From assembly GCA_027623015.1 (NCBI GenBank), contig JAQBVR010000011.1, positions 1-34,778 of the forward strand: a stretch of DNA of 34,778 nt, read 5' to 3'. Shown here piece after piece: positions 2,844 to 34,592 of this stretch. The notes under the pieces are model-generated. The model saw only the letters and a program-made list of their open reading frames with translations, was not told the DNA's origin and searched no databases. Position 1 is the first letter of the stretch, and every line of letters begins with the position of its first letter. Origin of the DNA: a bacterium. GTDB lineage: Bacteria > Patescibacteriota > Gracilibacteria > Peribacterales > Peribacteraceae. Position numbers and translations under genes: made by a program.

Positions 2844-3318
2844 CAGGCCGCAAGACGCGATCATTAAGCAAATAACCCTCTTCGAAGACTTTAAGAATCA
2901 TGTCCTTCTCCCCTTCTCCTGTCTGCAATATCTCATGAATATTGGGGTCTACAAGCTTTCCTAAACATTCCATCTTTTGAAGTCCAACGCTCTGAAGATC
3001 TGTAATCAACCCCTGCTCTACAGCCAGAAGGCCACCCACCCACTCATTGCCCTGAAGCTCCTTCGGTAAATGGTCAAAAGCACGTTGGAAGTTATCGACT
3101 GTCGGAAGAAGCTTCACGAGGAGTCCTGCGAGAGCAAACGCGCGGATCTCTGCTCCTTCCTTCTCCATCCTTACTTTTGCATTTTGCAAATCTGCCTGTG
3201 CACGCGCTGCAAGATCTTTGAGACGATTGGCTTCATCTTTCACTGCCTCAAGTTCTTGCGAGATCAAAGCGATATCATCTTCTCCCTGTGTTGAGCCCTT
3301 CTTGGATTGTGCAGTCAT
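2815..3318 (-). CDS. grpE: GrpE nucleotide-exchange factor
   Basis: A 167-residue protein. An N-terminal charged coiled coil (about 20-60) is followed by a segment with LLPTVDNFQRAFDHL and the C-terminal beta-domain signature GYLLNDRVLRPAKVKVG, diagnostic of GrpE. GrpE releases ADP from DnaK during the chaperone cycle. No dnaK or dnaJ is in the window and I see no CIRCE element upstream. The start is supported by TATACT ending 6 nt before the ATG. The gene is divergent from the antiporter at 3402 and convergent with murD2. Confidence 0.95.
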   Translation of the reverse strand: MTAQSKKGSTQGEDDIALISQELEAVKDEANRLKDLAARAQADLQNAKVRMEKEGAEIRAFALAGLLVKLLPTVDNFQRAFDHLPKELQGNEWVGGLLAVEQGLITDLQSVGLQKMECLGKLVDPNIHEILQTGEGEKDMILKVFEEGYLLNDRVLRPAKVKVGSGS

Positions 3319-3324
3319 ATGAGA

Positions 3325-3330
3325 AGTATA
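3325..3330 (-). promoter_or_regulatory. -10-like box of grpE
   Basis: TATACT on the minus strand, 6 nt before the ATG at 3318. No good -35 and no Shine-Dalgarno are visible, so the transcript may be leaderless. Confidence 0.55.
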
Positions 3331-3340
3331 ACAGCTTGTG

Positions 3341-3368
3341 TAGATTATAGACTCTAGATTTTAGATTT
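3341..3368 (+). repeat. heptamer array (TAGATTW) in the grpE/antiporter spacer
   Basis: Four units: TAGATTA, TAGACTC, TAGATTT, TAGATTT. It has the same 7-base period as the arrays in coding regions but a different word. Confidence 0.85.
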
Positions 3369-3388
3369 TTTAATAAGGGAAAATCACC

Positions 3389-3394
3389 TACACT
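3389..3394 (+). promoter_or_regulatory. -10-like box of the antiporter gene
   Basis: TACACT, 7 nt before the ATG at 3402. Confidence 0.5.
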
Positions 3395-3401
3395 ACATCC
3401 A

Positions 3402-4403
3402 ATGACTACCACTTTCACCCTTCTTCTCTTTGCATTCAGTGTCATTCTGCTTATAAAAGGAGCGGACTGGCTCGTAGAAGGTGCATCAGATATCGCACAG
3501 CGCCTTGGTGTATCAGACCTTGCCATTGGCCTTACAGTCGTATCGTTTGGTACGTCGATGCCAGAGCTTTTAGTAAACGTTATCGCGAGTCTAAACAGCA
3601 GTGCAGATATCGCCATTGGAAACATCCTCGGTAGTAATATCTCCAACACGTTACTCATCCTCGGTGCAACAGCGATCATCGCTCCACTTACCATCCAACG
3701 TAGTACCGTACTCAAAGAGATCCCCTTCTGTCTGCTCGCATCGTGTGTACTGTATGTCATGGCAAATGATGCAATGGTAAATAGATACCCTCTCTCTGAA
3801 CTAAGCCGTGGAGACGGCATCGTATTCATTGGATTCTTCCTCATCTTCCTTTACTACACGTTTGGCATGAGTAATAACGGCAAGGATAAAGAACATACGA
3901 AACCAAGCATGTCCGTTCCTCGTGCATGGCTCATGGTTATCGGAGGACTCATAGGACTAAGTCTCGGAGGAGGTATCGCAGTCGATACCGCACAAACCAT
4001 TGCGCTCAATCTTGGCATCTCCGAAGCACTTGTAGGACTAACTGCAGTTGCTATCGGGACATCGCTTCCTGAGCTTACTGCCTCTGTGATGGCTGCGTTA
4101 AAAGGCAAGTCCGACATAGCAATAGGTAACATCGTCGGAAGTAACATCTTCAACATCTTCTGGATACTTGGTATCTCTGCAACCATCAAACCTTTAACAT
4201 TTCAACCAGCACAAAACTTCGATCTCCTCGTCGTCGTTTTCTCTGCGTTACTCCTCTTCTTCCTCGTACAAAACGGCCACATTCACTACCGCGTACTCAT
4301 GTGGTGGAGGAAGCAACAAGAGTTCATTTTGAAGCGTTGGGAGGGAGGTGTCTTACTAGCCTCCTATGTCGCATACATCGCGTATATTAGTTGGCGTGGC
4401 TAA
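3402..4403 (+). CDS. calcium/sodium antiporter, CaxA/YrbG family
   Basis: A 333-residue polytopic inner-membrane protein built of two homologous halves, as in the Na+/Ca2+ exchanger superfamily. The first alpha-repeat reads GTSMPELLVN then GNILGSNISN (about 50-85). The second reads GTSLPELTASV then GNIVGSNIFN (about 220-255). These GTS-PE and GNxxGSN motifs line the cation path in the family. About ten hydrophobic segments are visible. It probably exports Ca2+ (or exchanges cations) against Na+; the ions cannot be read from the sequence. The gene stands alone between grpE and an inverted-repeat region. Confidence 0.93.
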   Translation: MTTTFTLLLFAFSVILLIKGADWLVEGASDIAQRLGVSDLAIGLTVVSFGTSMPELLVNVIASLNSSADIAIGNILGSNISNTLLILGATAIIAPLTIQRSTVLKEIPFCLLASCVLYVMANDAMVNRYPLSELSRGDGIVFIGFFLIFLYYTFGMSNNGKDKEHTKPSMSVPRAWLMVIGGLIGLSLGGGIAVDTAQTIALNLGISEALVGLTAVAIGTSLPELTASVMAALKGKSDIAIGNIVGSNIFNIFWILGISATIKPLTFQPAQNFDLLVVVFSALLLFFLVQNGHIHYRVLMWWRKQQEFILKRWEGGVLLASYVAYIAYISWRG

Positions 4404-4408
4404 TGCAT

Positions 4409-4660
4409 AAGGACCAAGGGCGGGAGGGCAAAGGGCGTTCTCTATAGTGATAGAATGTGTTTGTTGTTTATAATAAGCGATAAAATCACTTTTGGTATTT
4501 GTAAATATTTCTAGACTCTTTTATATGACTATTGTTTTGATAGAGGATATCAGTATGGATAATTCCTCTTCAACTCATCAGAAAGTCCAAAAACTGCTGA
4601 AACGCACAAAAGAAACTAAAGAGTTAAAGCTTTGCCTTAGTCCTCCCGCCCTTGGTCCTT
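4409..4660. repeat. 252-bp segment bounded by a 26-bp inverted repeat
   Basis: 4409-4434 and 4635-4660 are inverted copies matching at 24 of 26 positions; the outer 19 bp are perfect (core GGACCAAGGGCGGGAGG at 4411-4427). The segment fills the gap between two convergent genes. The right arm is followed by a second TTGGTCC word. I see no direct target duplication. The interior is A/T-rich and holds only a 47-codon ORF (4525-4668) that runs into the repeat. Confidence 0.8.
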
Positions 4661-4664
4661 GGTC

Positions 4665-5198
4665 CTAATCCAAAGGAGCCACACATGGCACAGCAGGATC
4701 TGCGATGCAGTTCTCTGCGGGAGGATCCCCTCTCCATGGACAGGTCTTGGAATACAAGCATGCATCATCTGTAAGAAGCTCTACTTGATGCAACACCTCT
4801 GCACTTCCTGCAGATGTTGTAAGCAGCACTGCATCCATGTCTTTGAATACATACGAAAGATCAAACTCCATCTCTTCGCCGTTCACGAACATAAGCCACG
4901 TTTTATCTGCAGCAAAATCATACTGCAATGAGTCAAAGAACTCCTGTAGAGAGAGGCCTGGCTTGTGCCTGTGTAGCACATCACCTATCTCATCGTGCAT
5001 ATGTAGATGCTTGTGATGATCAGCTTCATCGCTCGGAATGCCAGACATATACTCAGGACCAGAGAAGTCCACCTTCTCACCATCAAACCACACAGAAAAG
5101 TCTGCATGGGTATGGTTTGGATCTGGATTCTGCTCATAACTGCGCTGGATGCAAGCTGCAAGAAGGATAGTGAGGACGATGGGGGCGAATCGCTTCAT
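4665..5198 (-). CDS. predicted His-rich lipoprotein of unknown function
   Basis: A 177-residue protein with a lipoprotein signal peptide: MKRF, a hydrophobic core and lipobox LLAAC, with lipidated Cys near 16. The mature part begins with NHTHADFSVWFDG (about 27-40) and has a dense histidine stretch, DHHKHLHMHDEIGDVLHRH (about 60-80), then LMFVNGEEMEF and a four-Cys C-terminus. The histidines and acidic residues suggest metal binding; this is inference. I recall the HxHADF segment from uncharacterised CPR and archaeal proteins but cannot name a family. ATG 5198 is favoured by the signal peptide and by TACAAT 7 nt upstream. Confidence 0.75.
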   Translation of the reverse strand: MKRFAPIVLTILLAACIQRSYEQNPDPNHTHADFSVWFDGEKVDFSGPEYMSGIPSDEADHHKHLHMHDEIGDVLHRHKPGLSLQEFFDSLQYDFAADKTWLMFVNGEEMEFDLSYVFKDMDAVLLTTSAGSAEVLHQVELLTDDACLYSKTCPWRGDPPAENCIADPAVPCVAPLD

Positions 5199-5205
5199 AT
5201 GAGGC

Positions 5206-5211
5206 ATTGTA
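5206..5211 (-). promoter_or_regulatory. -10-like box of the His-rich lipoprotein gene
   Basis: TACAAT on the minus strand, 7 nt before the ATG at 5198. Confidence 0.5.
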
Positions 5212-5328
5212 GCAAATTTTGTTTTGTATGTGAATTGTTGGGCTCTTCGATTCGTCCGGCTTCGTCTCTGGACTACGCCGCGACTCACTCAGAGTCATTC
5301 GGCTCGCGACGAAAGTGGCCGGAGCGCC

Positions 5329-5374
5329 AGAGCGCGACGACCATGAGCGAGCTCCACAGAGCGAGTCGAATGGT
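5329..5374 (-). repeat. hairpin directly after tRNA-Met, starting in its CCA
   Basis: On the minus strand, ACCAT at the tRNA end pairs with ATGGT about 25 nt later; GCTC/GAGC pairs inside. The same ACCATTCGACT...GCTCATGGTC words follow tRNA-Lys at 34747. Confidence 0.6.
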
Positions 5375-5447
5375 GCCACAGGACAGAATTGAACTGTCGA
5401 CCTCGGGCTTATGAGTCCCGCGCTCTAACCAACTGAGCTACTGTGGC
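5371..5447 (-). tRNA. tRNA-Met (anticodon CAT)
   Basis: Acceptor GCCACAG pairs with CTGTGGC, followed by A and encoded CCA. The D arm AGCTCAGTTGGTTAGAGC and the T loop TTCAATT are present. The anticodon loop CTCATAA carries CAT. The anticodon stem has four GC pairs and an A-G mismatch next to the loop. Elongator Met is most likely; tRNA-Ile2, with a lysidine-modified CAT, cannot be excluded. Confidence 0.92.
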
Positions 5448-5608
5448 ATGAATAGTGTAAGAATAGGGTACCAGAATGTAAAATGACAGAGTGACCTACC
5501 CGCCGAAGCCGTAGCGTAGTAGGGCTGTGGCATACGTGATGACTGAATGATCTGACTAACTTCTTGTCGGCAATAGCTTAAGCGACGGATGATGAATTAT
5601 GAAGAGAA
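5448..5608. other. spacer without a gene between tRNA-Met and the SLH protein gene
   Basis: No credible ORF. It holds loosely repeated words (ATGACAGA, ATGACTGA, ATGATCTGA), possibly a decayed array, and an imperfect CCTAC...GTAGG pairing near 5500-5530. Nothing clearly functional. Confidence 0.5.
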
Positions 5609-6766
5609 TTATCGAATTTCTTCTCCATACTCATACAATCTCCACACCAACCAGACTACATCTTTTCGTTTCATAGGGGCGCTAGGGTCTAGATACGTAA
5701 AAAGAACATGGTTATCGATAGCGTGGCTCACATAACGGTCGAACCACTGACCACCTGTATCTCGTGTCTCTATCGCATTCGCTTCGTATGCCATCTTGAG
5801 TGCTTCAGCCACGTTCACCTCTTTACTTGGCTGAAACGTACCATCTGGGTAGCCCTCTACGATACCTAGTGCCTTAGCAGTTGCAATATACGGTATGTAC
5901 CAAGCACCCTGGTCAAGGTCAGGAAAGTTCGATTTGGCAGAAGAAACCTCCACGCCAAGTGCCTCTAGGATTATCTTGAGGAACTCAACACGATTTACGG
6001 TCTGCTCTGGCAAAAAATTGCCATCTGGGTACCCTCCAACTGTGCCTGTATTTTTTGCCCACACGATAGCATCAGCGTAAGGATGCTCTGGGGAAACATC
6101 TGAAAAGAGTGCAGATACACTGCCATCTGGAATGATCTGCTCCTCATTCCCTCCAACATCTTGGAGTGTCACTGAAGAAAGCATGTCCTCATAAAAGAAG
6201 TGGTTTTCCTCTATGAAGTCATCTAAGGAACGGAATCCCAACGTATAAAGATACCGACCATTGGAAAACCATGTCTCTTCTCTATACCCCGTCATGGTCG
6301 TAAAGCGAATAGTCCAAGCAGGCACATCAGCCACATGTGTAAACCGCTCCTCTAGACGTTCGTACTCACGAAAGCGTGGTCGTGTTTCGTCGTTTGCAAA
6401 TCTCTGCACCTCTTCGGAAGAGAGCTCATGTCCTATATCCCATACAAGAGCATAGAGCTCAAATATATAGTTATCGCGCTTTCCTAGACCCGCATCATGT
6501 GGAAGGAGACGAATATATGCATAATCTATAGATGCATCTTCAGATACTCCCCCTCGTTCTTTCAGTGGATCGTTCCAAGATTTAGGATACGTAAAACGCA
6601 ATCCCCAACCATCTGGTTCTGCGTACTTGTGGCGCCAATCTGCAGCAGTAGGACCATCTTCATCTGCCGTAGTTGCACTCTCACGAATAGAACGAAACGA
6701 CGGCCGCGCTTCTGCAGTATGTATACAGAGTAGTACGCCAACCAGAACGAGGAAGAATCTCTTCAT
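5609..6766 (-). CDS. secreted SLH-domain surface protein
   Basis: A 385-residue protein with a Sec signal peptide ending near TAEA (about 20). Residues 45-205 form a beta-rich module with WGLRFTYPKSW and MLSSVTLQD, reminiscent of PsbP-like or DUF1795-like folds; that resemblance is by eye. The C-terminal half has S-layer homology repeats, visible as FSDVSPEHPYADAIVWA, GYPDGNFLPEQTVNRVE, GYPDGTFQPSKEVNVAEAL and a third weaker copy. SLH repeats usually bind peptidoglycan-linked secondary polymers, so this is probably a cell-wall-bound protein. It is divergent from the glycosyltransferase at 6801, with a 34-bp gap carrying -10-like boxes for both. Confidence 0.88.
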   Translation of the reverse strand: MKRFFLVLVGVLLCIHTAEARPSFRSIRESATTADEDGPTAADWRHKYAEPDGWGLRFTYPKSWNDPLKERGGVSEDASIDYAYIRLLPHDAGLGKRDNYIFELYALVWDIGHELSSEEVQRFANDETRPRFREYERLEERFTHVADVPAWTIRFTTMTGYREETWFSNGRYLYTLGFRSLDDFIEENHFFYEDMLSSVTLQDVGGNEEQIIPDGSVSALFSDVSPEHPYADAIVWAKNTGTVGGYPDGNFLPEQTVNRVEFLKIILEALGVEVSSAKSNFPDLDQGAWYIPYIATAKALGIVEGYPDGTFQPSKEVNVAEALKMAYEANAIETRDTGGQWFDRYVSHAIDNHVLFTYLDPSAPMKRKDVVWLVWRLYEYGEEIR

Positions 6767-6774
6767 ATTGACCC

Positions 6775-6780
6775 ATCATA
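6775..6780 (-). promoter_or_regulatory. -10-like box of the SLH protein gene
   Basis: TATGAT on the minus strand, 8 nt before the ATG at 6766. Confidence 0.5.
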
Positions 6781-6786
6781 CCATGA

Positions 6787-6792
6787 TACAAT
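6787..6792 (+). promoter_or_regulatory. -10-like box of the first glycosyltransferase gene
   Basis: TACAAT, 8 nt before the ATG at 6801; it is packed against the divergent box at 6775. Confidence 0.5.
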
Positions 6793-6800
6793 TCTGAACA

Positions 6801-8168
6801 ATGAAGAAGTTCAATCCCATAGACCTCTGGACCATCATCATTCTTTTGACAGGAGTAGGGTTGCGTCTTTATTTTATAACAGACTATCTCTGGTTCGACG
6901 AGATATGGTCACTGAAACATGCAGACTCCATGACAAATACTTGGTCAGTATTTACTCTGCATCACGACAACAACCATTATCTCAATACATTGTGGTTGCG
7001 GCTTCTCGACACAAATGCAAGTGTGTATCTCCTACGACTTCCTGCACTTCTGTGTGGCATCACACTCCCCTTCCTCATCACATGGTGGGCACGCAAAAGC
7101 AGTGCTCGAGAAGGAGTGATAATAGCGTCACTTCTCAGTGTATCTTTCCTCTTTATAAAAACATCTATCGAAGCTCGAGGATATGCTCCAATGCTTCTAT
7201 GTGGATTCATCGCATATCTATTGATGATACAATTGCTTCAGAAACCAACCAAAAAAACAGCACTTCTTTACGGAGTGACAATCTCAATTGCATTTCTCTG
7301 GCATCTTACGGTCTTATTTCTCTTTATGGCACTGGGGATCCTTGCAACGTTTGTCTTGATCAATAGCAAAGATGCGAAAAAAATGTTCACACATCTATTT
7401 ATAGCACATAGCATTCCTCTCGTCACAATTGTGCTTCTGTACTCAATCGATATTAGATACTTCGACTTTGGTGTGCAAATCGGAATCCCTCGTGATGAAG
7501 CATTAGAAATCATCATTGGGGCTATAGTAGGTCCCTACCCAGCAGGAAAAATCACAGCAATAACAGAATGTGGAATATTACTCATATTGATACGACATTT
7601 CGACAGACTACTCCACACAGATAGCGAAGCATTTGTCTTCAAGACAAGTATCCTGTTCCTTGCTCCAGTACTGGGGCTCATCATATATTTGCCAACCATG
7701 CTCACTGTTCGCATGTTCCTGTTTCCCCTTTTGTTTGTACTCATATTGCTCAAACAAGAGCTGAAACATATGCATCATATAGTAGTCATAATCATCGTAT
7801 TCCTCTACAGTTTCGGAAACATCTATGGACTCCATTCAGACATAGAAAACTATCGCATTACCTACGTAAAAGAATTTGCATATGTTCTCAATGAAAGTGC
7901 ACCAGATGTCCCTACTATAGGAAGCAGCAGTGACCTTATGATGGAGATGCTGCTGTATCAACACCACAGAACACACAACACCAATGAAGAAATCATCTTC
8001 ATTCCAGAAAAGGAATTTCTGAAGCAAAAACCAGAATGGTTATTCATACAAACTCGGTATCGATACACATTCCCCAAAGAAATTGTAGAGAACATTGAGA
8101 AGAAGTACACTGTACAATCATCTCCTGCTCTAGAGGGTTCTCATTGGGAGATCTATCGTAAAAACTAA
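6801..8168 (+). CDS. GT-C-fold membrane glycosyltransferase (ArnT/PMT-like), paralog 1
   Basis: A 455-residue polytopic protein with roughly ten membrane segments. The first external loop has the acidic pair WFDEIWS (about 31-37), the position where GT-C enzymes carry catalytic acidic residues. HHDNNHYL follows, and ARGYAPML near 130 resembles the ArnT/PMT arginine motif. Such enzymes use polyprenyl-phosphate-linked sugars outside the membrane to modify lipids, glycans or proteins; donor and acceptor are unknown. The C-terminal soluble tail ends HWEIYRKN. It is a close paralog of the next gene, about 60% identical by eye in the core. Confidence 0.8.
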   Translation: MKKFNPIDLWTIIILLTGVGLRLYFITDYLWFDEIWSLKHADSMTNTWSVFTLHHDNNHYLNTLWLRLLDTNASVYLLRLPALLCGITLPFLITWWARKSSAREGVIIASLLSVSFLFIKTSIEARGYAPMLLCGFIAYLLMIQLLQKPTKKTALLYGVTISIAFLWHLTVLFLFMALGILATFVLINSKDAKKMFTHLFIAHSIPLVTIVLLYSIDIRYFDFGVQIGIPRDEALEIIIGAIVGPYPAGKITAITECGILLILIRHFDRLLHTDSEAFVFKTSILFLAPVLGLIIYLPTMLTVRMFLFPLLFVLILLKQELKHMHHIVVIIIVFLYSFGNIYGLHSDIENYRITYVKEFAYVLNESAPDVPTIGSSSDLMMEMLLYQHHRTHNTNEEIIFIPEKEFLKQKPEWLFIQTRYRYTFPKEIVENIEKKYTVQSSPALEGSHWEIYRKN

Positions 8169-8180
8169 TCTTAGACGTGC

Positions 8181-8186
8181 TACACT
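8181..8186 (+). promoter_or_regulatory. -10-like box of the second glycosyltransferase gene
   Basis: TACACT, 8 nt before ATG 8195. It favours this start over the in-frame GTG at 8177. Confidence 0.45.
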
Positions 8187-8194
8187 CTGCACCA

Positions 8195-9670
8195 ATGAAA
8201 AAAATGCACCCTCTGCATCTCTGGACTCTTCTCATCTTGTTTATAGGTATAGCTTTGCGCATAGCTGGGATACAAGACGAACTAAGTATAGACGAGATCT
8301 GGTCGATCGCTCATGTTGATGCAAGAACATCACCGTGGTCAATATTTACGATGCACCATGACAACAATCATTACCTGTACTCGCTCTATTTATGGCTACT
8401 TGGATCTAAGACAAGTGTTCTTCTTATCAAGCTACCCGGAATACTCTCTGGGCTTCTATTGCCATGTGTCATGACATGGTGGGCTCGAAAACGCAGTATA
8501 TACGAAGGACTTGTCATGGCCATACTGTCTAGCACATCCTTCTTACTCATCTCTCTATCTGCATTTGCACGAGGATACGCCCCCATGCTTCTCTTTGGAT
8601 TCCTAGCTTACATAGTCATGATGCATCACTTGAAGCGCCCTACGATACGTACCGCACTCCTCTACGGCGTCACTATGAGCATAGCTATACTGTGGCACCT
8701 TACTGTAATCCACTTGTTTGTTGCCTTAGGAATACTATCTATATATAAGCTGAGTAGAAGCACTACAAAGAAAATGTTTTTCATGCACATAGTCTTAGCA
8801 CATATCGTACCGCTAAGTGTATTGGCTCTACTCTATTACTTTGATATTAGACACATGGAAATAGGTGGTGGCATAGGAATGACTGCAAACGAAGTCCCCA
8901 TACTTACGCTATCCTCTCTTTTTGGACTACTTGAATCGGGTCTACTAAGTACCATCACAGCGTATGTACTGATGTTGGCTTTAGCTTTACGAATGGAACG
9001 CCTTGCTCACACCGATGATGAATGGAGTGTTTTCATCATCAGCATTGTGCTTATAGCTCCAATGCTCTGGCTTATCATTTGCATACCTCCCATCATTTAC
9101 ATACGGTACTTCATAATCTGTTTGCTCATGGGTATAGTAATAATGGGAAGAGAGATTACGACAGTACCACGAAAATACACCACAATAATCCTATTGTTAT
9201 ACTGCATAGGAAATCTGTACAGCCTGCAAGAATACTTGAGAAATAATGACGGAACACATCGAAAAACATTTACGTACATTCTCTCACAAAGCACACCTGG
9301 ATCTGTCCCTGTAGTGGGTAGCAATATGGATCTTCATACTCTTATGTACTTGTATGCATTCCACAAAAGAGATCATCGAAATACATCGATCTGGTATACC
9401 CAACATGAAAAAGACGATACATATGAACCAGAGTGGTTCTTGATACAAAAACCAGAATTTTCCTATGAAGGACAAGAGTATCTTTCTGAAGAAGAACTTA
9501 TGCAGTATACATTGCAATCAGATCCTTTGCTGGAGGATTCTCTGTGGAATGTATGGAAGAAGAATACCATTCGCCCAAAGAACATCACCTCAACTATGAT
9601 CAAACAGTACGATGCAGATTTGAAAAAACTACTCAACGAAACACACTGGTATATGTATCGACGAAACTAG
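8195..9670 (+). CDS. GT-C-fold membrane glycosyltransferase (ArnT/PMT-like), paralog 2
   Basis: A 491-residue tandem paralog of the preceding gene with the same landmarks: SIDEIWS in the first loop, HHDNNHYL, TWWARKRS, ARGYAPML and LLYGVTMSIAILWHLT. It keeps the acidic pair, so it may be active. The C-terminus is odd. After LWNVWKKN, which matches the end of paralog 1, it continues 34 residues and ends with a second version of the same ending, HWYMYRRN. This looks like the tail of a third paralog joined in frame by deletion. It begins 26 bp after paralog 1, which points to tandem duplication. Confidence 0.8.
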   Translation: MKKMHPLHLWTLLILFIGIALRIAGIQDELSIDEIWSIAHVDARTSPWSIFTMHHDNNHYLYSLYLWLLGSKTSVLLIKLPGILSGLLLPCVMTWWARKRSIYEGLVMAILSSTSFLLISLSAFARGYAPMLLFGFLAYIVMMHHLKRPTIRTALLYGVTMSIAILWHLTVIHLFVALGILSIYKLSRSTTKKMFFMHIVLAHIVPLSVLALLYYFDIRHMEIGGGIGMTANEVPILTLSSLFGLLESGLLSTITAYVLMLALALRMERLAHTDDEWSVFIISIVLIAPMLWLIICIPPIIYIRYFIICLLMGIVIMGREITTVPRKYTTIILLLYCIGNLYSLQEYLRNNDGTHRKTFTYILSQSTPGSVPVVGSNMDLHTLMYLYAFHKRDHRNTSIWYTQHEKDDTYEPEWFLIQKPEFSYEGQEYLSEEELMQYTLQSDPLLEDSLWNVWKKNTIRPKNITSTMIKQYDADLKKLLNETHWYMYRRN

Positions 9671-9678
9671 GAACATGC

Positions 9679-9684
9679 TACGCT
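9679..9684 (+). promoter_or_regulatory. possible -10-like box of the hydrolase gene
   Basis: TACGCT, 9 nt before ATG 9694; it is weaker than the others. Confidence 0.3.
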
Positions 9685-9693
9685 GACTGCAGT

Positions 9694-14163: not shown

Positions 14164-14169
14164 TACACT
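14164..14169 (+). promoter_or_regulatory. -10-like box of the MurF-type gene
   Basis: TACACT, 8 nt before ATG 14178. It decides between this start and the upstream GTG frame at 14082, which would overlap the divergent gene. Confidence 0.5.
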
Positions 14170-16912: not shown

Positions 16913-16918
16913 TAGGAT
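16913..16918 (+). promoter_or_regulatory. possible internal -10-like box before the FemX-type gene
   Basis: TAGGAT, 7 nt before ATG 16926 in the 18-bp intergenic gap. It may give the gene its own leaderless transcript. Confidence 0.3.
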
Positions 16919-18113: not shown

Positions 18114-18119
18114 TACTAT
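18114..18119 (+). promoter_or_regulatory. -10-like box of the small membrane protein gene
   Basis: TACTAT, 6 nt before ATG 18126. Confidence 0.45.
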
Positions 18120-21762: not shown

Positions 21763-21768
21763 TACAAT
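21763..21768 (+). promoter_or_regulatory. -10-like box of the coiled-coil lipoprotein gene
   Basis: TACAAT directly before three consecutive in-frame ATG-type codons. The usual 6-nt spacing picks the third (21775) as start. Confidence 0.45.
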
Positions 21769-21774
21769 ATGATG

Positions 21775-22688: not shown

Positions 22689-22694
22689 TACAAT
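22689..22694 (+). promoter_or_regulatory. -10-like box of the VirB4-like gene
   Basis: TACAAT, 10 nt before ATG 22705, slightly farther than in the other genes. Confidence 0.4.
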
Positions 22695-26164: not shown

Positions 26165-26170
26165 TGCGAA

Positions 26171-26176
26171 AAAATA
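26171..26176 (-). promoter_or_regulatory. -10-like box of the nrnA-like gene
   Basis: TATTTT on the minus strand, 6 nt before the ATG at 26164. Confidence 0.4.
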
Positions 26177-26596: not shown

Positions 26597-26600
26597 AGAA

Positions 26601-26717
26601 GACCGAAAAGATGTAGAAGACTAAAAAGACTGAAAGGAATGTAGCATATCAATCCATTCAATTATAAATCTTTCTCCTTTTAGTCCTTTCAGTCGTCTAA
26701 GTCCTTTCAGTCCTTAC
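26601..26717. repeat. nonamer-array hairpin between rbfA and fmt
   Basis: The left arm 26601-26636 has four 9-base units (GACCGAAAA, GATGTAGAA, GACTAAAAA, GACTGAAAG). The right arm has AGTCCTTTC, AGTCGTCTA, AGTCCTTTC, AGTCCTTAC at 26682-26717. The arms are mutually complementary: GACTGAAAGGA (26628-26638) pairs with either TCCTTTCAGTC at 26684 or 26702. It fills most of the divergent gap. Confidence 0.85.
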
Positions 26718-26727
26718 AAGAGAAGGT

Positions 26728-26733
26728 TAGAAT
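26728..26733 (+). promoter_or_regulatory. -10-like box of fmt
   Basis: TAGAAT, 7 nt before ATG 26741, directly after the repeat island. Confidence 0.5.
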
Positions 26734-26740
26734 CTTACTA

Positions 26741-27598: not shown

Positions 27599-27612
27599 TA
27601 TTTTATTATAAA

Positions 27613-27690
27613 CAGGATAAGTAATACGAGGAATAAAGGAAATAAGGGGCTCACTTATTTCTCTTATTTCACTTATTACCCTTATTTCCC
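27613..27690. repeat. nonamer-array hairpin before the TSP3/SLH gene
   Basis: The left arm 27613-27648 includes GAATAAAGG and AAATAAGGG. The right arm 27652-27687 is CACTTATTT, CTCTTATTT, CACTTATTA, CCCTTATTT. GGAAATAAGGG pairs with CCCTTATTTCC. It occupies nearly the whole gap after fmt. Confidence 0.88.
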
Positions 27691-27696
27691 TAAAAT
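27691..27696 (+). promoter_or_regulatory. -10-like box of the TSP3/SLH gene
   Basis: TAAAAT, 7 nt before ATG 27704, abutting the repeat island. Confidence 0.45.
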
Positions 27697-27703
27697 AATA
27701 AAG

Positions 27704-28957: not shown

Positions 28958-28962
28958 ATTTG

Positions 28963-28998
28963 AGAAATAAGGGAATTCCCTTATTTCCCTTATTTCTC
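28963..28998. repeat. nonamer repeat and perfect 24-bp palindrome after the TSP3/SLH gene
   Basis: 28964-28987 is a perfect palindrome centred on GGGAATTCCC. Two CCCTTATTT units at 28978-28995 match those at 27679. An alternative hairpin pairs 28962-28972 with 28988-28998. It may act as a bidirectional terminator between convergent genes. Confidence 0.85.
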
Positions 28999-29003
28999 GT
29001 AGA

Positions 29004-29321
29004 TTACACGTGACTTTTCATCTCGGTGAATGCCTGGATGAACTGATCGAGGTCCTCTGCATCAAACATGATAGTCGTCTTCTGACCACCGCGAGACTTC
29101 TCCGATAGCTTGAAGAACTTACCGTGACCAGACTCCTTCAGGTCGATGTAAAATGTGCGCTGACGAGCGTGGATAGTTGCTGAGTGAAGCTCAGAAGCGT
29201 AACTGCCTCCACCGCCACCGCCGCCACCGCCACTACTACTACGTACAGGAGGAGGGGAAGAAGCTGGACTGTCATCAGAGATACCTCCATCATCTGAAAG
29301 TTCTGACATAGGATCAAACAT
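29004..29321 (-). CDS. PUR-domain-like (PurA/BpuR-type) nucleic-acid-binding protein
   Basis: 105 residues from ATG 29321; the longer frame to 29471 overlaps metG and has no family similarity. An acidic Ser/Pro-rich N-terminus and a run of nine glycines (about 30-38) lead to a C-terminal PUR repeat: RTFYIDLKESGHGKFFKLSE, then KTTIMFDAEDLDQFIQAF. Single-PUR bacterial proteins such as Borrelia BpuR bind DNA and RNA and regulate expression. The flexible Gly linker is unusual. It lies 86 bp downstream of metG on the same strand. The identification is by recalled motif. Confidence 0.72.
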   Translation of the reverse strand: MFDPMSELSDDGGISDDSPASSPPPVRSSSGGGGGGGGGSYASELHSATIHARQRTFYIDLKESGHGKFFKLSEKSRGGQKTTIMFDAEDLDQFIQAFTEMKSHV

Positions 29322-29406
29322 AATAATATGTGGAAAATAAGTAGGGTTGCCTCTCCGGTGCTTTGCACTTGCGACGAATCTTGTCTTTTCGACTTTTCCG
29401 TCTCTT

Positions 29407-30945
29407 CTAAGAAAGAGGCGGAAAGAGGATAGACGGCTCACCAATAGTTTGCCAATCCTTTTGTCCACCAAATTCTTTCATCTGCTCTGTGATCACAAAA
29501 TCTTTCTCTAACATTGATTTGGCATAGGGTACTCCGAGCTGTTTCGCTATAGCCTGCGCAGTCTGAGGTACGAAGGGCAGAAGCATAAGCGATACATGAC
29601 GAAGGGATTCAGCAAATCTCGAAAGAAGTGTCACCTTCTCTTCACCTTCCAATGTCCAAGGTTTCGTAGTGTCGATAGCACCATTGAGGACATCTACCAG
29701 TGCCAGTGCCTGCTGGATACCATTGTGTACTTCAAAACTGTCCATAGACTCTCCAAATTTTTTCCATCCATCCTCCGCTTGTGTCGTATCAGATGGCGAA
29801 TCAGGAATGGCTATCTTGCCTCCTTCTTTTTGAATCAAGATAAGAACACGATTGAGTAGATTACCAAGTGCATTACGCATTCTTGCATCATAGAGCTTCT
29901 CAAAACGATCCCAAGAGAAGTCACCATCACTACCTACTGAGATCTCATGACTTAAGTAAAACCGAATAGGATCTGGATTACCATCAAACTTTTCAAGTAC
30001 ATCATCTGGAACAACTACGTTCCCCGTAGACTTACTCATCTTCTGTCCTTCACTAGTGAGAAATCCATGAATAAGTAACTCATCTGGCGTTCGCACTCCT
30101 ACATGCTTCAGCATACTTGGCCAGATAAGCGCGTGAAAACGTGCGATGTCTTTACCAATAACATGTGTAACCGTAGCATCATCCCACCACTCTCTCTCCT
30201 CGTGATCTGTGAATAATCCCAAACCAGAAATATAGTTCGTGAGAGCATCACACCAGACATACATGGTGTGTTCATCATCCTCAGGAACTGGGATACCCCA
30301 ATCGAGAGATGACTTCGGACGAGAGAATGAAACATCTTCCAATCCTTGATCAAGCAAAGCCAATGTTTCCTTCTCACGATTATTGGGAATTATTCTGTAT
30401 GACTCTCCATCCCATTCTTTCGTCAGAAGGTTTTTTAAGTTCTCCGTGTCTTTACTCATCAGGAAAAAATAATTCTCTTCTTCTACCTCCTCAGGAGCTA
30501 CTTGATGATTTGGACAGATGCCATCTGTAAGATCCCGAGCAGTCATGAACCGTTCACACCCACTACAATACAAACCCTTATAACTGCGCTTTTCTAGCAT
30601 TCCCGCATCGGCAAGCTTCTTCCAAATCACCTGAACAGTAGGCCAATGAACCTTTTGATCTGTCGTACGGATAAAAAGATCATGCGAGATCTGCAAACGA
30701 TCATATAAACCCGTAAATAATTCTACGTTTCGATCTGCCAATTCTTGTGGTGTCACACCTTCTTTGTCCGCAGCTCTTTGCATCTTCGTACCATGCTCAT
30801 CTGTACCAATCTGAAATCGCACGTCATCCCCCTTCAGGCGAAACCACCGTGCACAGACATCTGCAAGTACCTTCTCAAGTACATGCCCCATGTGTGGAGC
30901 CGCATTTGGATAATCGATAGCCGTAGTGATGTATCGCCGAGACAT
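29407..30945 (-). CDS. metG: methionyl-tRNA synthetase
   Basis: 512 residues. The class I HIGH motif is in PNAAPHMGHVLEKVLAD (about 14-30). The connective peptide has one zinc knuckle, YCSGCERF, with a second CPNH half. KMSKSTGNVV (about 300) is the KMSKS loop, and the anticodon-binding helix bundle follows (HVSLMLLPFVPQTA). The C-terminal EMAP-like dimerisation domain of some MetG proteins is absent, as in compact forms. TAAGAT ends 6 nt before the ATG and overlaps a nonamer island upstream. Confidence 0.96.
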   Translation of the reverse strand: MSRRYITTAIDYPNAAPHMGHVLEKVLADVCARWFRLKGDDVRFQIGTDEHGTKMQRAADKEGVTPQELADRNVELFTGLYDRLQISHDLFIRTTDQKVHWPTVQVIWKKLADAGMLEKRSYKGLYCSGCERFMTARDLTDGICPNHQVAPEEVEEENYFFLMSKDTENLKNLLTKEWDGESYRIIPNNREKETLALLDQGLEDVSFSRPKSSLDWGIPVPEDDEHTMYVWCDALTNYISGLGLFTDHEEREWWDDATVTHVIGKDIARFHALIWPSMLKHVGVRTPDELLIHGFLTSEGQKMSKSTGNVVVPDDVLEKFDGNPDPIRFYLSHEISVGSDGDFSWDRFEKLYDARMRNALGNLLNRVLILIQKEGGKIAIPDSPSDTTQAEDGWKKFGESMDSFEVHNGIQQALALVDVLNGAIDTTKPWTLEGEEKVTLLSRFAESLRHVSLMLLPFVPQTAQAIAKQLGVPYAKSMLEKDFVITEQMKEFGGQKDWQTIGEPSILFPPLS

Positions 30946-30951
30946 GGCTCT

Positions 30952-30957
30952 ATCTTA
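30952..30957 (-). promoter_or_regulatory. -10-like box of metG
   Basis: TAAGAT on the minus strand, 6 nt before the ATG at 30945. Confidence 0.5.
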
Positions 30958-31046
30958 AGGAACAAGAGGAGAGAAAGGAACAAAAAGAACTAGATGAGTT
31001 CGCCTGCGTCTTTTTGATCTTTTAGTTCATGTAGATCCTTTAGATC
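30957..31046. repeat. nonamer-array hairpin between the VirB2-like operon and metG
   Basis: The left arm units are AAGGAACAA, GAGGAGAGA, AAGGAACAA, AAAGAACTA, GATGAGTTC (30957-31001). The right arm units are TTTTTGATC, TTTTAGTTC, ATGTAGATC, CTTTAGATC (31011-31046). The arms are loosely complementary. Confidence 0.8.
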
Positions 31047-31054
31047 TTCTGCCC

Positions 31055-31411
31055 TTAGTTCGCCGATGTTACATCGGTTGCTAGTGTATCAACAAAGTTG
31101 ATCAATCCACTAGAGATGATAGCTAAGATGAGACCTCCAACCGCGAATATGACGATCTTCTTTGCTTTCTCTCTTCCTTCTTCATTCCCACCAGAATTGA
31201 TCATACCTGTTGCACCCCACATAATTGCAAGGACCGCTCCACCAGAAATAAACTGAAGAAAGAGTGAACCCACATTGCCTGCCAACCTAGCAATAAAGTC
31301 TGGGTTACCAGGAGAAGCACCCATAGGAATACTGTAGTTATCCCATACACTACTAGCAGCGTATGCTACTTGGATGAAAATTTTACTGAGGATAGTATTG
31401 AGGAGTGACAT
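31055..31411 (-). CDS. VirB2/TrbC-like membrane protein 3
   Basis: 118 residues. A leader with hydrophobic core and AYAAS (about 16-20) is followed by two membrane segments (AGNVGSLFLQFISGGAVLAI and KKIVIFAVGGLILAIISSGL) joined by the polar loop GMINSGGNEEGREKA. This two-helix plan is that of VirB2/TrbC pilin-type subunits. Its ATG overlaps the stop of the gene before by one base (TAATG), implying translational coupling. It is probably a partner of the VirB4-like ATPase at 22705; this is inference. Confidence 0.78.
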   Translation of the reverse strand: MSLLNTILSKIFIQVAYAASSVWDNYSIPMGASPGNPDFIARLAGNVGSLFLQFISGGAVLAIMWGATGMINSGGNEEGREKAKKIVIFAVGGLILAIISSGLINFVDTLATDVTSAN

Positions 31412-32022
31412 TAGATAGGGGCGTTGAAAATACCTCGAACGAGAACATGTGCAGTGTTTATAACAAGGGCACCAATCACAGCCCAGATTATCATGGTCTT
31501 GGCTTTTTGTGCCTCATCTGTTTTACCATGACTTATAACAAAACGGATACCAGCAACTACTGCAATCAAAGCAAAGACTGCATTGAATGCCCCAAGCATG
31601 ATACCAACCGATATCTCCATGACATCGATGAGCGGACCACCTGAGCTTGGTGCCGCACCTGCAAGGCTGCCATATTTGGTGACAACAAATGATACAATGG
31701 TCTGTGACACAAGAGTCAGAGCAAAACCTCCAAGGCTAAAGATGACTGCATTGCGCCCCTTCGTAACTTTACTCTCATCACCGAAACTCATAAGCATCAT
31801 AAAACCTCCATACACAACGAACAATATGGCAAAACCAGCAGCACCAGCAAGAAATATTTTACCAAGAGACTCAAGAAGTGAACTGATCATTCCACTACCG
31901 AGTGTGCCATCACATGCAACACTACCAACCGAACAAGCAGTAGCTCCCAGAGATGCTGCAAGAGCATCAAATGGGAAGAGTATGAAGGCAAAAGCGGTAA
32001 TAACGGGGAAAGAATGTTTCAT
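31411..32022 (-). CDS. VirB2-like multi-pass membrane protein 2
   Basis: 203 residues. The signal sequence ends FDALAAS (about 22). A Cys pair (ACSVGSVACDG) is followed by four hydrophobic segments arranged as two VirB2-like pairs: FLAGAAGFAILFVVYGG with a loop SFGDESKVTKGR and NAVIFSLGGFALTLV; then MLGAFNAVFALIAVVAG with SHGKTDEAQKAK and MIIWAVIGALVINTA. It therefore looks like an internal duplication or fusion of two pilin-type units. It is the middle gene of a three-gene operon and starts 5 bp after the stop of gene 1. Confidence 0.72.
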   Translation of the reverse strand: MKHSFPVITAFAFILFPFDALAASLGATACSVGSVACDGTLGSGMISSLLESLGKIFLAGAAGFAILFVVYGGFMMLMSFGDESKVTKGRNAVIFSLGGFALTLVSQTIVSFVVTKYGSLAGAAPSSGGPLIDVMEISVGIMLGAFNAVFALIAVVAGIRFVISHGKTDEAQKAKTMIIWAVIGALVINTAHVLVRGIFNAPI

Positions 32023-32026
32023 AATT

Positions 32027-32461
32027 CTAGATATAATAGGCGTTATTGATTGATTGTAAAATAAATCCTGCAAAAAGCATCATAAGTAAACCAGCAATAG
32101 CCCACGTCATTCTGTTGATAGCAGAAGACCGACGGCCTTGATCATTCCCAGAAGTCATATACATCATTCCAGCTATAAGAACCCAGATGATACAAAAGCT
32201 AATCGCAATATTGAAAATCCACGTTGAAGAACGGATGAAATACTCCTCAAACGTCCCTGTTGAAGTTGAAATAACTAAAGGAGTACCAAAATTATCATCA
32301 AGTGGTTGGATAAGGCAAAGAACACCCGTTTCCTGCTCATTAGGTTTTGTGCTTGGGCAAGTATCAGGAGTGGCATGAGATGCAAGCGCATGCATTGGTA
32401 GCGCTGCAAAAATGAGACAGAAACACGCGACCCTGTGAAATGTTGTTATAACTCGATTCAT
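32027..32461 (-). CDS. VirB2-like membrane protein 1
   Basis: 144 residues from ATG 32461; a perfect TATAAT 6 nt upstream chooses it over GTG 32464. A signal peptide (MHALAS, about 28) is followed by a short external part with two Cys (CPSTKPNEQETGVLC) and two membrane segments (WIFNIAISFCIIWVLIAGMM and MTWAIAGLLMMLFAGFIL) around the loop TSGNDQGRRSSAINR. It has the same architecture as the two genes that follow, so the three look like paralogs or parts of one membrane assembly. Confidence 0.75.
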   Translation of the reverse strand: MNRVITTFHRVACFCLIFAALPMHALASHATPDTCPSTKPNEQETGVLCLIQPLDDNFGTPLVISTSTGTFEEYFIRSSTWIFNIAISFCIIWVLIAGMMYMTSGNDQGRRSSAINRMTWAIAGLLMMLFAGFILQSINNAYYI

Positions 32462-32467
32462 CACATT

Positions 32468-32473
32468 ATTATA
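32468..32473 (-). promoter_or_regulatory. -10 box of the VirB2-like operon
   Basis: Perfect TATAAT, 6 nt before ATG 32461. The mobile element at 32508 begins about 35 bp upstream, so its insertion may have replaced the native -35 or upstream region. Confidence 0.6.
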
Positions 32474-32499
32474 GCAGAAATCAGCTTCTGGCGCTAGTC

Positions 32500-32928
32500 C
32501 TGAAAACGTAACTGCTCACTGACCGCAGTCCGACCTCACCCTGACCCTCTCCTCTTCGGAGGAGAGGGAACTGTTTTGTGTGTGTTTGAATAATGTCTTA
32601 AAGCACGTTTTTTGATATATGACGCTCCAAACCTAGAATGCTGATTCACTTGCCAGCCGCCCTTGTTTGAGCGAGGGCATGAGATTATTGGCTCATCCAG
32701 TCACTGAGTGCCAAGTGACCGCAGTCAGCTTGGTCGAAGTGCGCACAGTACTGATGAGCAAGTATGGCCCGAGTGAGGCTCGGCTGGCAGGCGTTTTTGG
32801 CTCCACCTTTTGAAGTTTATCCTGAGCCTGATGAAGGGCGGAAAAAAGGTGGAATAGTGTTTGCAGTATAAATCTGAGGGAGAATCATAAATAGGAAGTG
32901 CAGAGTCAGTGAGCAGTTACCTGAAAAC
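32500..32928. mobile_element. 413-bp non-coding MITE-like element, IS66-like ends
   Basis: Perfect 16-bp terminal inverted repeats GTAACTGCTCACTGAC (32508-32523) and GTCAGTGAGCAGTTAC (32905-32920) are flanked by an 8-bp direct repeat CTGAAAAC (32500-32507 and 32921-32928). Ends in GTAA and an 8-bp target duplication are typical of the IS66 family. There is no transposase ORF, so it would need to move in trans. Inside are an inverted copy of part of the 18001 element (32532-32579) and an inverted repeat GCCAGCCG/CGGCTGGC (32652-32659 and 32782-32789). It explains the only gap of more than 300 bases without a gene. Confidence 0.85.
32532..32579 (-). repeat. inverted copy of 18054-18101
   Basis: 43 of 48 positions match the reverse complement of 18054-18101. 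It contains a CCCTCTCCTC/GAGGAGAGGG hairpin and lies inside the MITE-like element. Confidence 0.85.
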
Positions 32929-32988
32929 CAAATTCTCCTCAGCCAAAACTTGCATATACTGCAGAATATTCGTAGGATCTCCACTACT

Positions 32989-33065
32989 GCGGATGTAGCT
33001 CAGTTGGCTAGAGCGTCTCCTTGCCATGGAGAAGGTCGCGAGTTCGAATCTCGTCATCCGCTCCA
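32989..33065 (+). tRNA. tRNA-Gly (anticodon GCC)
   Basis: Acceptor GCGGATG pairs with CATCCGC, with discriminator T and encoded CCA. The anticodon stem TCTCC/GGAGA holds the loop TTGCCAT. The T arm has GTTCGAATC. Confidence 0.96.
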
Positions 33066-33180
33066 ACCTGCGCGCAGCGTAGGTTGCCATCCGAAGCACG
33101 GAGTACGCAGGATGGTTATTTGTCAAACAGGTTCGCTGCGCTTCGGTTGGCAGGCCACTTCGAATCTCGCCAAATAGCTG
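33064..33180 (+). repeat. hairpin and repeat tract directly after tRNA-Gly
   Basis: 33064-33073 pairs with 33077-33086 (10 bp with one G-U, 3-nt loop), starting in the last two bases of the CCA. The tract to about 33165 resembles the one after tRNA-Leu. TTCGAATCTCG near 33163 repeats part of the tRNA-Gly T arm. Confidence 0.7.
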
Positions 33181-33266
33181 TGAATATAGTTGCCAAATAG
33201 AAAATTTCATCTTTAATATACTCTTTGATCTTTCCCTGCATATTGGGAGAGCTAACCGATTCCTCG

Positions 33267-33308
33267 TGGGCATGTGCCCATTCTAACTTAGAGGGATCTG
33301 ATCCCTCT
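33267..33308 (+). promoter_or_regulatory. two hairpins upstream of the unknown ORF at 33334
   Basis: TGGGCA/TGCCCA (33267-33280) and AGAGGGAT/ATCCCTCT (33290-33308, 3-nt loop). There is no U-tract. They could be a leader structure or simple repeats. The rest of 33181-33333 shows nothing else. Confidence 0.4.
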
Positions 33309-33333
33309 CCCTACCCGATGAAAGGTAAGTCAA

Positions 33334-33738
33334 TTGTCACAGAAACTCCCAATAAAACTCACCTACCGAAATCCAGACATGAAACATGCTGTGACCTTGT
33401 TCCCCATTGAAAGTGGCGGAACAAGAATCAGCAAAATGGTCGTGAAAGGCGAAAACATTGAAACGCTGCCACTTGTTGATGTTCCAGACGACATGTCTGC
33501 GATCGCAAACGCATGGGCAGCTCAAGAAGAGGCAGAAATTCCCATCACAGAAGTTGCCATCGCATTAAATCCCTTCCTCCAAGGAAGGGTGCAGTTCGTT
33601 CTGGAAAAAGGAGTTGTATTTCTGGTCGTTTGCCATTTGGCACTACCAGACGAGTCAACTATCTCGATTGACAGGATGAAGTATATCGAAGGTTTTTGCA
33701 TTCGGGAAGGTGTACTTGCACCGATCAAAGCCGATTGA
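33334..33738 (+). CDS. hypothetical protein
   Basis: Up to 134 residues from TTG 33334 (AAAGGTAAG precedes it), or 119 from ATG 33379 (MKHAVTLFPIES). It is soluble, with no signal peptide or membrane segment. It reads as alternating beta-strands with KMVVKGENIETLPLVDVP, a short helix DMSAIANAWAAQEEAEI, then VQFVLEKGVVFLVVCHLALP. I do not recognise a family. It lies alone between tRNA-Gly and tatD, convergent with tatD. Regular codon use and a long open frame make it probably real. Confidence 0.55.
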   Translation: MSQKLPIKLTYRNPDMKHAVTLFPIESGGTRISKMVVKGENIETLPLVDVPDDMSAIANAWAAQEEAEIPITEVAIALNPFLQGRVQFVLEKGVVFLVVCHLALPDESTISIDRMKYIEGFCIREGVLAPIKAD

Positions 33739-33800
33739 CCCTTCGTCAAAACAAAGAGAGGGAATCAGGGCACGCGACTTTTATAGTTGTGGGCCCTGTT

Positions 33801-34580
33801 TCATATACCGTAAAACTTCTCTGCATTCTCTGTAGTAGCCTTTGCTACTTCTTCGAGAGCTATCCCCTTCACCTCTGCGATACACTTTGCAACTTCTATT
33901 ACAAACGCAGGCTCATTGCGCTTTCCTCTATATGGAATAGGCGCAAGGTACGGCGCATCTGTCTCGATCATCATCTGCTTAAGAGGACACTCTGCAATCG
34001 TTCTTCGGATCTCTTCAGACTTCGGATACGTAGCGATACCTGTAAACGACAAAAGGCATCCTCTATCAACTACCCAAGACACATCTTCCCACTTCTCCGT
34101 ACAGCAATGGATGACAAACATAGGTGGATCGATGCGCTCAATAATTTCACGTACATCGACCATTGATTCCCTGCAATGGATGACTGCAGGAATATTTAAC
34201 TCTTTGGCTATCTTCAACTGCTCTTCAAAAACAGATCTTTGCACGTCTCGAGGAGAATTATCGTAATGATAGTCCAACCCGATCTCCCCAATGGCGACAA
34301 CTTTTGGTGAAGAGGAGACAAGTTTCAACATCATATCCCTACTCCCTACTCCCGACTCCCGACTCCCTGACCCCCACGCGCTAGCGTGATGCGGATGCAC
34401 CCCTACTGTACAAAATATGTGTTCATACTTTTCAGCTATCTGTAGACAATCTTTAGCCTCAGGTAGTGAATCAGCTATACAGACCATCTTAGCTACCCCA
34501 GCCTCCCCTGCACGCTCAATAACGGCATCCAGATCTTTGGAAAACTGCTTGTCTGCGAGGTGGCAATGGGAATCTATCAT
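33801..34580 (-). CDS. tatD: TatD-family metal-dependent DNase
   Basis: 259 residues with the TIM-barrel amidohydrolase-type metal site: DSHCHLA (3-9), GVHPHHA (about 60), GEIGLDYHYD (about 98-107), VIHCRE (about 133), FVIHCC (about 155) and ETDAPYLAP (about 206-214). It is a 3'-5' exonuclease involved in DNA repair or turnover. Length is normal for the family, but residues about 68-80 (WGSGSRESGVGSRD) are an extra loop made by a heptamer array. TAGAAT lies 6 nt before the ATG. Confidence 0.95.
   Translation of the reverse strand: MIDSHCHLADKQFSKDLDAVIERAGEAGVAKMVCIADSLPEAKDCLQIAEKYEHIFCTVGVHPHHASAWGSGSRESGVGSRDMMLKLVSSSPKVVAIGEIGLDYHYDNSPRDVQRSVFEEQLKIAKELNIPAVIHCRESMVDVREIIERIDPPMFVIHCCTEKWEDVSWVVDRGCLLSFTGIATYPKSEEIRRTIAECPLKQMMIETDAPYLAPIPYRGKRNEPAFVIEVAKCIAEVKGIALEEVAKATTENAEKFYGI
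34334..34375 (-). repeat. heptamer array (GGGAGTM) inside tatD
   Basis: Plus-strand units TATCCCT, ACTCCCT, ACTCCCG, ACTCCCG, ACTCCCT, GACCCCC. They encode SGSRESGVGSRD between the GVHPHHA and GEIGLDYH motifs, where TatD homologues have a short loop. Confidence 0.9.
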
Positions 34581-34586
34581 AGGAAG

Positions 34587-34592
34587 ATTCTA
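34587..34592 (-). promoter_or_regulatory. -10-like box of tatD
   Basis: TAGAAT on the minus strand, 6 nt before the ATG at 34580. Confidence 0.5.

What the first reader, a model, noticed from the sequence alone, without database searches (positions are those of the whole stretch)
3318..34592. Window-wide leaderless promoter signature: TANNNT ending 6-9 nt before the start codon
By eye, 17 genes on both strands have TANNNT ending 6-9 nt before the chosen start: grpE TATACT(6), 3402 TACACT(7), 5198 TACAAT(7), 6766 TATGAT(8), 6801 TACAAT(8), 8195 TACACT(8), 9694 TACGCT(9), 14178 TACACT(8), 16926 TAGGAT(7), 18126 TACTAT(6), 21775 TACAAT(6), 26164 TATTTT(6), fmt TAGAAT(7), 27704 TAAAAT(7), metG TAAGAT(6), 32461 TATAAT(6), tatD TAGAAT(6). 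VirB4 has TACAAT at 10. Shine-Dalgarno and -35 consensus are not evident at these sites, while operon-internal starts (murD2, the DegT gene, the SH3b gene) lack the box. Transcripts would begin at or near the AUG. Leaderless mRNAs with such boxes are known from Deinococcus. Some starts were chosen with the box in mind, which inflates the count slightly.
Basis: partly seen in the sequence, partly recalled or inferred. Interest (0 to 1): 0.75.

Follow-up and report, generated by a model that had tools for sequence, protein, structure and literature searches.

The report
Leaderless promoters in a Peribacteria genome
In this tiny uncultured bacterium (a Peribacteria member of the Candidate Phyla Radiation) about a third or more of genes carry the promoter's -10 box right against the start codon, so their messages probably begin at the AUG itself, while the usual ribosome-binding (Shine-Dalgarno) signal and its partner in ribosomal RNA have been lost.

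Summary
With starts chosen blind to the box over 615 kb of the genome, 159 of 457 genes have TANNNT ending 6-9 nt before the start, against 50±7 in shuffles; the modal gap of 6 puts +1 on the A of AUG. De novo motif search recovers (G)CTACAAT at that place. Box and spacing persist among relatives although flanks diverge (metG 8/8 at gap 6). Shine-Dalgarno 4-mers are depleted, not enriched. The 16S anti-SD is mutated in this genome (CUUCC for CCUCC) and in 25 of 27 family members. Nitrospirota-like controls and E. coli show SD and no box. Best explanation: sigma-A leaderless promoters, as in Deinococcus and Actinobacteria, in a lineage that gave up SD pairing. Unexpected addition: family genes, notably operon-internal ones, carry UUCC(C/A) about 15 nt before the AUG, a candidate replacement signal of unknown reader. 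Transcript 5' ends remain unmapped.

The parts
3325..3330 (-). -10 box TATACT, 6 nt before grpE start (3318)
   Evidence: GrpE by Pfam
3389..3394 (+). -10 box TACACT, 7 nt before Na/Ca exchanger start (3402)
5206..5211 (-). -10 box TACAAT, 7 nt before ORF start 5198; best -35 TTCACA at 17 bp
6775..6780 (-). -10 box TATGAT, 8 nt before SLH-domain gene (6766); back-to-back with the next
6787..6792 (+). -10 box TACAAT, 8 nt before PMT_2 glycosyltransferase gene (6801)
8181..8186 (+). -10 box TACACT, 8 nt before ORF start 8195
9679..9684 (+). -10 box TACGCT, 9 nt before alpha/beta hydrolase (9694)
14164..14169 (+). -10 box TACACT, 8 nt before Mur ligase (14178)
16913..16918 (+). -10 box TAGGAT, 7 nt before FemAB gene (16926)
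18114..18119 (+). -10 box TACTAT, 6 nt before ORF 18126
21763..21768 (+). -10 box TACAAT, 6 nt before ORF start 21775 (an ATG also at 21769)
22689..22694 (+). -10 box TACAAT, 10 nt before VirB4/TraG-like ATPase (22705)
26171..26176 (-). -10 box TATTTT, 6 nt before DHH phosphoesterase (26164)
26728..26733 (+). -10 box TAGAAT, 7 nt before fmt (26741); a TANNNT box also 7 nt before the ATG in relatives L041, L043, L047
27691..27696 (+). -10 box TAAAAT, 7 nt before SLH/TSP3 gene (27704)
30952..30957 (-). -10 box TAAGAT, 6 nt before metG (30945); TANNNT at gap 6 in all 7 named relatives
32468..32473 (-). -10 box TATAAT, 6 nt before T4SS pilin gene (32461)
34587..34592 (-). -10 box TAGAAT, 6 nt before tatD (34580); gaps 6, 8, 8, 10 in relatives
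1525..1528 (+). TTCC element 14 nt before operon-internal start 1539 (4-nt overlap with upstream gene, no box, no SD)
29332..29335 (-). TTCC element 14 nt before the start of the unboxed gene 29004-29321

Best explanation
The boxes are the -10 elements of ordinary sigma-A (RpoD) promoters placed so that transcription starts on, or 1-3 nt before, the A of the start codon. The mRNAs of most first genes of transcription units are therefore leaderless and would be started by ribosomes recognising a 5'-terminal AUG with fMet-tRNA, without a Shine-Dalgarno duplex. The organism belongs to Peribacteria (Candidate Phyla Radiation), where SD signals have vanished and the 16S anti-SD core has decayed, so leaderless initiation is the main recognisable way of starting translation. 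Shown: box, spacing, genome-wide and family-wide enrichment, conservation, weak -35, intact RpoD regions 1.1-4, SD absence, anti-SD mutation. Inferred: transcript 5' ends at the AUG, and 5'-AUG ribosome loading.
For: Box-blind enrichment 159/457 versus 50±7. EM motif GCTACAATA in about 55% of upstream regions, commonest with the box ending 6 nt before the start. -35 TTG at 16-17 bp and extended -10 TG. RpoD with sigma regions 1.1, 1.2, 2, 3 and 4. Orthologue conservation: when own gene is boxed 22 of 23 start-aligned relatives are too, otherwise 9 of 31 (p=7e-7; one relative per gene p=3e-4), with upstream identity only 38%; metG gap 6 in 8 of 8. Present in all 10 sampled family genomes at GC 0.38-0.63, pooled 29.5% versus 5.3%. 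SD 4-mers 4.2% versus 8.0% background. Own 16S tail GGAACACUUCC. Controls: 696 Nitrospirota/Deltaproteobacteria-type genes have box 8.6% versus 7.3% and SD 42% versus 15%; E. coli box 5.7% and SD 63%.
Against: No 5' end data. Strictly, 35% of genes (about 28% after subtracting background) are boxed; the rest use something else or have wrongly called starts. Some boxes (gap 8-10) would leave 2-4 nt leaders. The gene caller covers only 72% of the sequence and its starts are imperfect. The -35 is weak.
Confidence: 0.87

Rival explanations
1. The box is a translation signal in the mRNA (an A/U-rich element read by the ribosome or S1), not a promoter.
For: It sits at a fixed distance from the start codon, and the organism lacks SD.
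Against: The motif is the sigma-70 hexamer with extended -10 TG and a -35 at 16-17 bp. It is most frequent at divergent starts and least at operon-internal starts, the reverse of what a translation signal should show.
Confidence: 0.05
2. Base composition or start-choice artefact: TANNNT is common in AT-rich upstream DNA and starts were picked to fit.
Against: Box-blind starts still give 35% against 10%, 16 sd above shuffles. The signal holds in relatives with 57-63% GC where background is 3-5%. The same caller finds nothing in E. coli or the Nitrospirota-type set.
Confidence: 0.01
3. The boxes are real promoters, but mRNAs of these genes are mostly made from additional upstream promoters with longer leaders, so leaderless transcripts are minor.
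For: Extra TANNNT occurrences upstream of several genes; a small secondary peak at a gap of about 25.
Against: Tight spacing at 6-9 is kept across orthologues, which selection on a minor start would hardly maintain; leaders would lack any SD.
Confidence: 0.12

Closest known systems
TA-led (leaderless) genes of bacteria, Zheng et al. 2011 (PMC3160421)
   Same: TANNNT -10-like motif about 12 bp upstream of the start, interpreted as a promoter of leaderless genes; prominent in Actinobacteria and Deinococcus-Thermus.
   Different: Those lineages also use SD; here SD is absent in every gene class tested. The survey predates most CPR genomes (my knowledge).
The -10-motif of Deinococcus-Thermus (PMC12340547)
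   Same: TANNNT 6-7 bp before the ORF, most often TACACT, in about a third of genes; here TACACT (20) and TACAAT (17) are commonest in 35% of genes.
   Different: Deinococcus keeps a GGAG ribosome-binding motif as second motif; here the second motif is UUCC(C/A), not SD.
SD-scarce organisms lacking CCUCC (PMC10783764, Table 4), which lists Candidatus Peribacter riflensis at 7% SD
   Same: Same lineage, low SD, no conserved CCUCC.
   Different: In the passages read, that paper reports no -10 box or leaderless promoters for Peribacter; this work links the loss to leaderless promoters, extends it to 25 of 27 family genomes and shows SD loss also in class members that keep CCUCC.
Flavobacteria/Bacteroidota with lost SD use (discussed in PMC10783764)
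   Same: Bacteria without SD signals.
   Different: No comparison of -10 boxes at their start codons was made here; from general knowledge they are thought to use A-rich leaders.

Membership tests
TA-led leaderless genes (sigma-70 type) | TANNNT motif at a fixed short distance upstream of the start codon, above chance | tested here: met
TA-led leaderless genes (sigma-70 type) | No SD at those genes | tested here: met
   boxed genes 1.9% SD 4-mers versus 6.0% shuffled
TA-led leaderless genes (sigma-70 type) | Housekeeping sigma factor with -10 and -35 reading regions | tested here: met
   RpoD with regions 1.1-4; weak -35
TA-led leaderless genes (sigma-70 type) | Transcript 5' end at or within a few nt of the AUG | not testable with these tools
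   no RNA data
Deinococcus -10-motif | -10 motif coexists with a GGAG ribosome-binding motif | tested here: not met
   SD 4-mers below background in all gene classes
SD-scarce organisms lacking CCUCC | 16S 3' tail without CCUCC | tested here: met
   own tail GGAACACUUCC at G000:C10 end; 25 of 27 family genomes
SD-scarce organisms lacking CCUCC | Few genes with SD | tested here: met
   4.2% own, 3.7% family, below background

The most novel reading that the evidence does not exclude
Peribacteria run on two non-SD start modes: leaderless AUGs for first genes and, for operon-internal and leadered genes, a new pyrimidine ribosome-recruiting element UUCC(C/A) about 15 nt before the AUG that took over the SD slot. 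It would be read either by a protein or by the family-specific GGAA in the 16S tail (GGAUC changed to GGAAC), while the old anti-SD core drifts.
Probability: 0.35. Interest if true: 0.88.

Novelty: new variant of a known kind. Interest (0 to 1): 0.62.

Why it matters
Leaderless promoters are known in Actinobacteria and Deinococcus, and SD loss in Flavobacteria, but a bacterial lineage that combines genome-wide leaderless promoters with loss of both SD and anti-SD, resembling some archaea, would be a natural test of how bacterial ribosomes choose starts without SD. It gives an order of events: class members that keep CCUCC already show no SD use, so use was probably lost before the rRNA partner decayed. 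It also matters in practice: gene finders that weight SD will misplace starts in these genomes, and the -10/AUG rule can fix them. The UUCC element makes a new start signal testable.

Tried and rejected
Extended 16S 3' end: the pre-16S trailer GGGAA is complementary to UUCCC, suggesting an inverted SD. Genomes whose trailer is GGGAG should then use CUCCC, but they still use UUCCC (14 versus 1.3 expected; CUCCC 1 versus 0.9). G.U pairing keeps this from being a full refutation, but no compensation is seen. UUCC as a promoter element: no other element lies at a fixed distance upstream and it occurs inside upstream coding sequence in 4-nt overlaps, so judged unlikely. Pairing of UUCC with 16S tail GGAA: two of three GGAA-tailed CPR genomes outside the family lack UUCC and G113 has 3 of 26, flanking bases do not extend the pairing, and in the canonical SD register GGAA would face mRNA nearer the AUG; left open. 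SD adapted to the mutated anti-SD (GGAA, GAAG): not enriched.

Full report
What it is in. The window is contig C24 of a 1.1 Mb, 46-contig genome. Its metG is 68-78% identical to genomes named Candidatus Peribacter or Peregrinibacteria and then drops to 40% elsewhere, so the organism is a Peribacteria member of the Candidate Phyla Radiation.

The observation. To remove start-choice bias I wrote a codon-usage gene caller that ignores upstream sequence and ran it on 615 kb of the genome. TANNNT ends 6-9 nt before the chosen start in 34.8% of 457 genes; other 4-nt offsets give about 10%. Dinucleotide shuffles give 50±6.8, never above 71, against 159 observed. In the window alone it is 13 of 27, p=5e-7. 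Unsupervised EM on the 40 nt upstream returns GCTACAATA with the box most often 6 nt from the start. The commonest hexamers are TACACT and TACAAT.

It is a promoter. Aligned on the box, TTG is enriched at spacers of 16-17 bp, matches to TTGACA peak at 17 bp, and TG of an extended -10 occurs in 18% against 5.5%. The genome encodes a complete RpoD with regions 1.1, 1.2, 2, 3 and 4. The box is commonest at divergent starts (41%) and least common at starts within 20 nt of an upstream gene on the same strand (23%). With a sigma-70 promoter, a hexamer ending 6 nt upstream puts +1 on the A of AUG; this step is established knowledge plus inference, not measured.

Conservation. For metG, seven named relatives all have TANNNT exactly 6 nt before ATG although the flanks do not align. 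A TANNNT box stands 7 nt before the fmt ATG in three relatives, and tatD has gaps of 6, 8, 8 and 10 in four. Over 54 start-aligned pairs with family loci, 22 of 23 relatives of boxed genes are boxed, against 9 of 31 relatives of unboxed genes (p=7e-7); with one relative per gene p=3e-4. Mean upstream identity is 38%.

Spread and controls. All ten sampled genomes of the same family show it at GC 0.38-0.63, pooled 29.5% versus 5.3%. Eight genomes of other families in the class: 26% versus 11%. Nineteen other CPR genomes: 23% versus 11%, together with SD at 25% versus 9%. A 696-gene set from Nitrospirota- and Deltaproteobacteria-type contigs and 50 kb of E. coli show no box excess but strong SD, so the caller does not create the signal.

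SD and anti-SD. SD 4-mers are below background in own genome (4.2% versus 8.0%), family (3.7% versus 12.8%) and class (3.8% versus 8.4%), including operon-internal genes. A pattern search found the 16S 3' end of this genome at a contig edge: GGAACACUUCC, not GGAUCACCUCC. Among 27 family genomes only two keep CCUCC; the others read CUUCC, UCUCC, UUUCC or UUUCU. Outside the family 34 of 40 keep CCUCC. Since class members with intact CCUCC already lack SD enrichment, SD use was probably lost first. One base of the core co-varies with the trailer (CUCC with GGGAG, UUCC with GGGAA), so a pre-rRNA hairpin appears to be maintained while pairing with mRNA is not, which also argues against sequencing error. 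Candidatus Peribacter riflensis was already listed as SD-scarce without CCUCC (PMC10783764); I found no report of leaderless promoters in Peribacteria or other CPR in the searched library, which is limited to open-licence papers.

An unexpected second signal. Genes without the box show YTTCC(C/A) at a tight position: TTCC begins at -15 or -14. At -16..-13 it occurs in 9.0% of own genes (2.1% background, p=3e-14) and 11.4% of other family genes (3.2%, p=4e-11), and not in the class, other CPR, Nitrospirota-type or E. coli sets. The seven named Peribacteria loci give only 4.6% (not significant). It is frequent where genes overlap (own 6 of 33, expected 0.4; family 6 of 28, expected 0.5). A run of overlapping genes with chorismate synthase and trpD, trpC, trpF and trpB type domains (L003:2595-7078) has it before each start; ftsZ, rplL and a ribosome-hibernation-type gene have TTCCC(C) there. 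This points to an mRNA-level start signal. What reads it is unknown; the trailer-pairing idea was tested and not supported.

How it most likely works. First genes: sigma-A promoter abutting the AUG, 5'-terminal AUG recognised by fMet-tRNA-loaded ribosomes (inferred from work on leaderless mRNAs elsewhere). Operon-internal and leadered genes: no SD; termination-reinitiation at overlaps and perhaps the UUCC element (inferred). S1 and IF3 are present and no bS21 was found; the same bS21 search is also negative in the Deinococcus-Thermus, Corynebacterium and Thermotoga control genomes.

Verdict. Observation confirmed; interpretation supported with a correction on -35 and on operon-internal genes. 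The kind of promoter is known; the combination with complete SD loss and anti-SD decay, and the UUCC element, are new as far as could be searched.

Noticed in passing
L003:2595-7078 and 44 genes listed; window 1525-1528 and 29332-29335: Family-specific UUCC(C/A) element starting 14-15 nt before the AUG in genes without the -10 box, strong at gene overlaps including a trp/aroC operon.
   Followed up: partly
16S 3' ends, e.g. L170 (own), L124-L147: Decayed anti-SD core co-varies with the GGGAA/GGGAG trailer (hairpin in pre-16S); the adjacent GGAA (GGAUC elsewhere) is invariant in the family.
   Followed up: partly
window 6766-6801: Two divergent genes only 34 bp apart, each with its own -10 box in the gap; promoters overlap back to back.
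   Followed up: no
L287, minus strand: The infC (IF3) frame has no ATG before its conserved N-terminus; an ATT preceded directly by TTTCCCC is a possible start.
   Followed up: no
L034, L038, L031, L009 upstream regions: Short intergenic tandem repeats of the type CCCTACTCCC before several genes.
   Followed up: no
G041, G048, G100, G115, G117, G118: Some sampled class or phylum genomes read more open frame with TGA as sense, hinting at recoded TGA; some may reflect small samples.
   Followed up: no
own genome, Ribosomal_S21 search: No bS21 found; the same search was positive in 6 of 14 controls and negative in Corynebacterium, Thermus, Deinobacterium and Thermotoga.
   Followed up: partly
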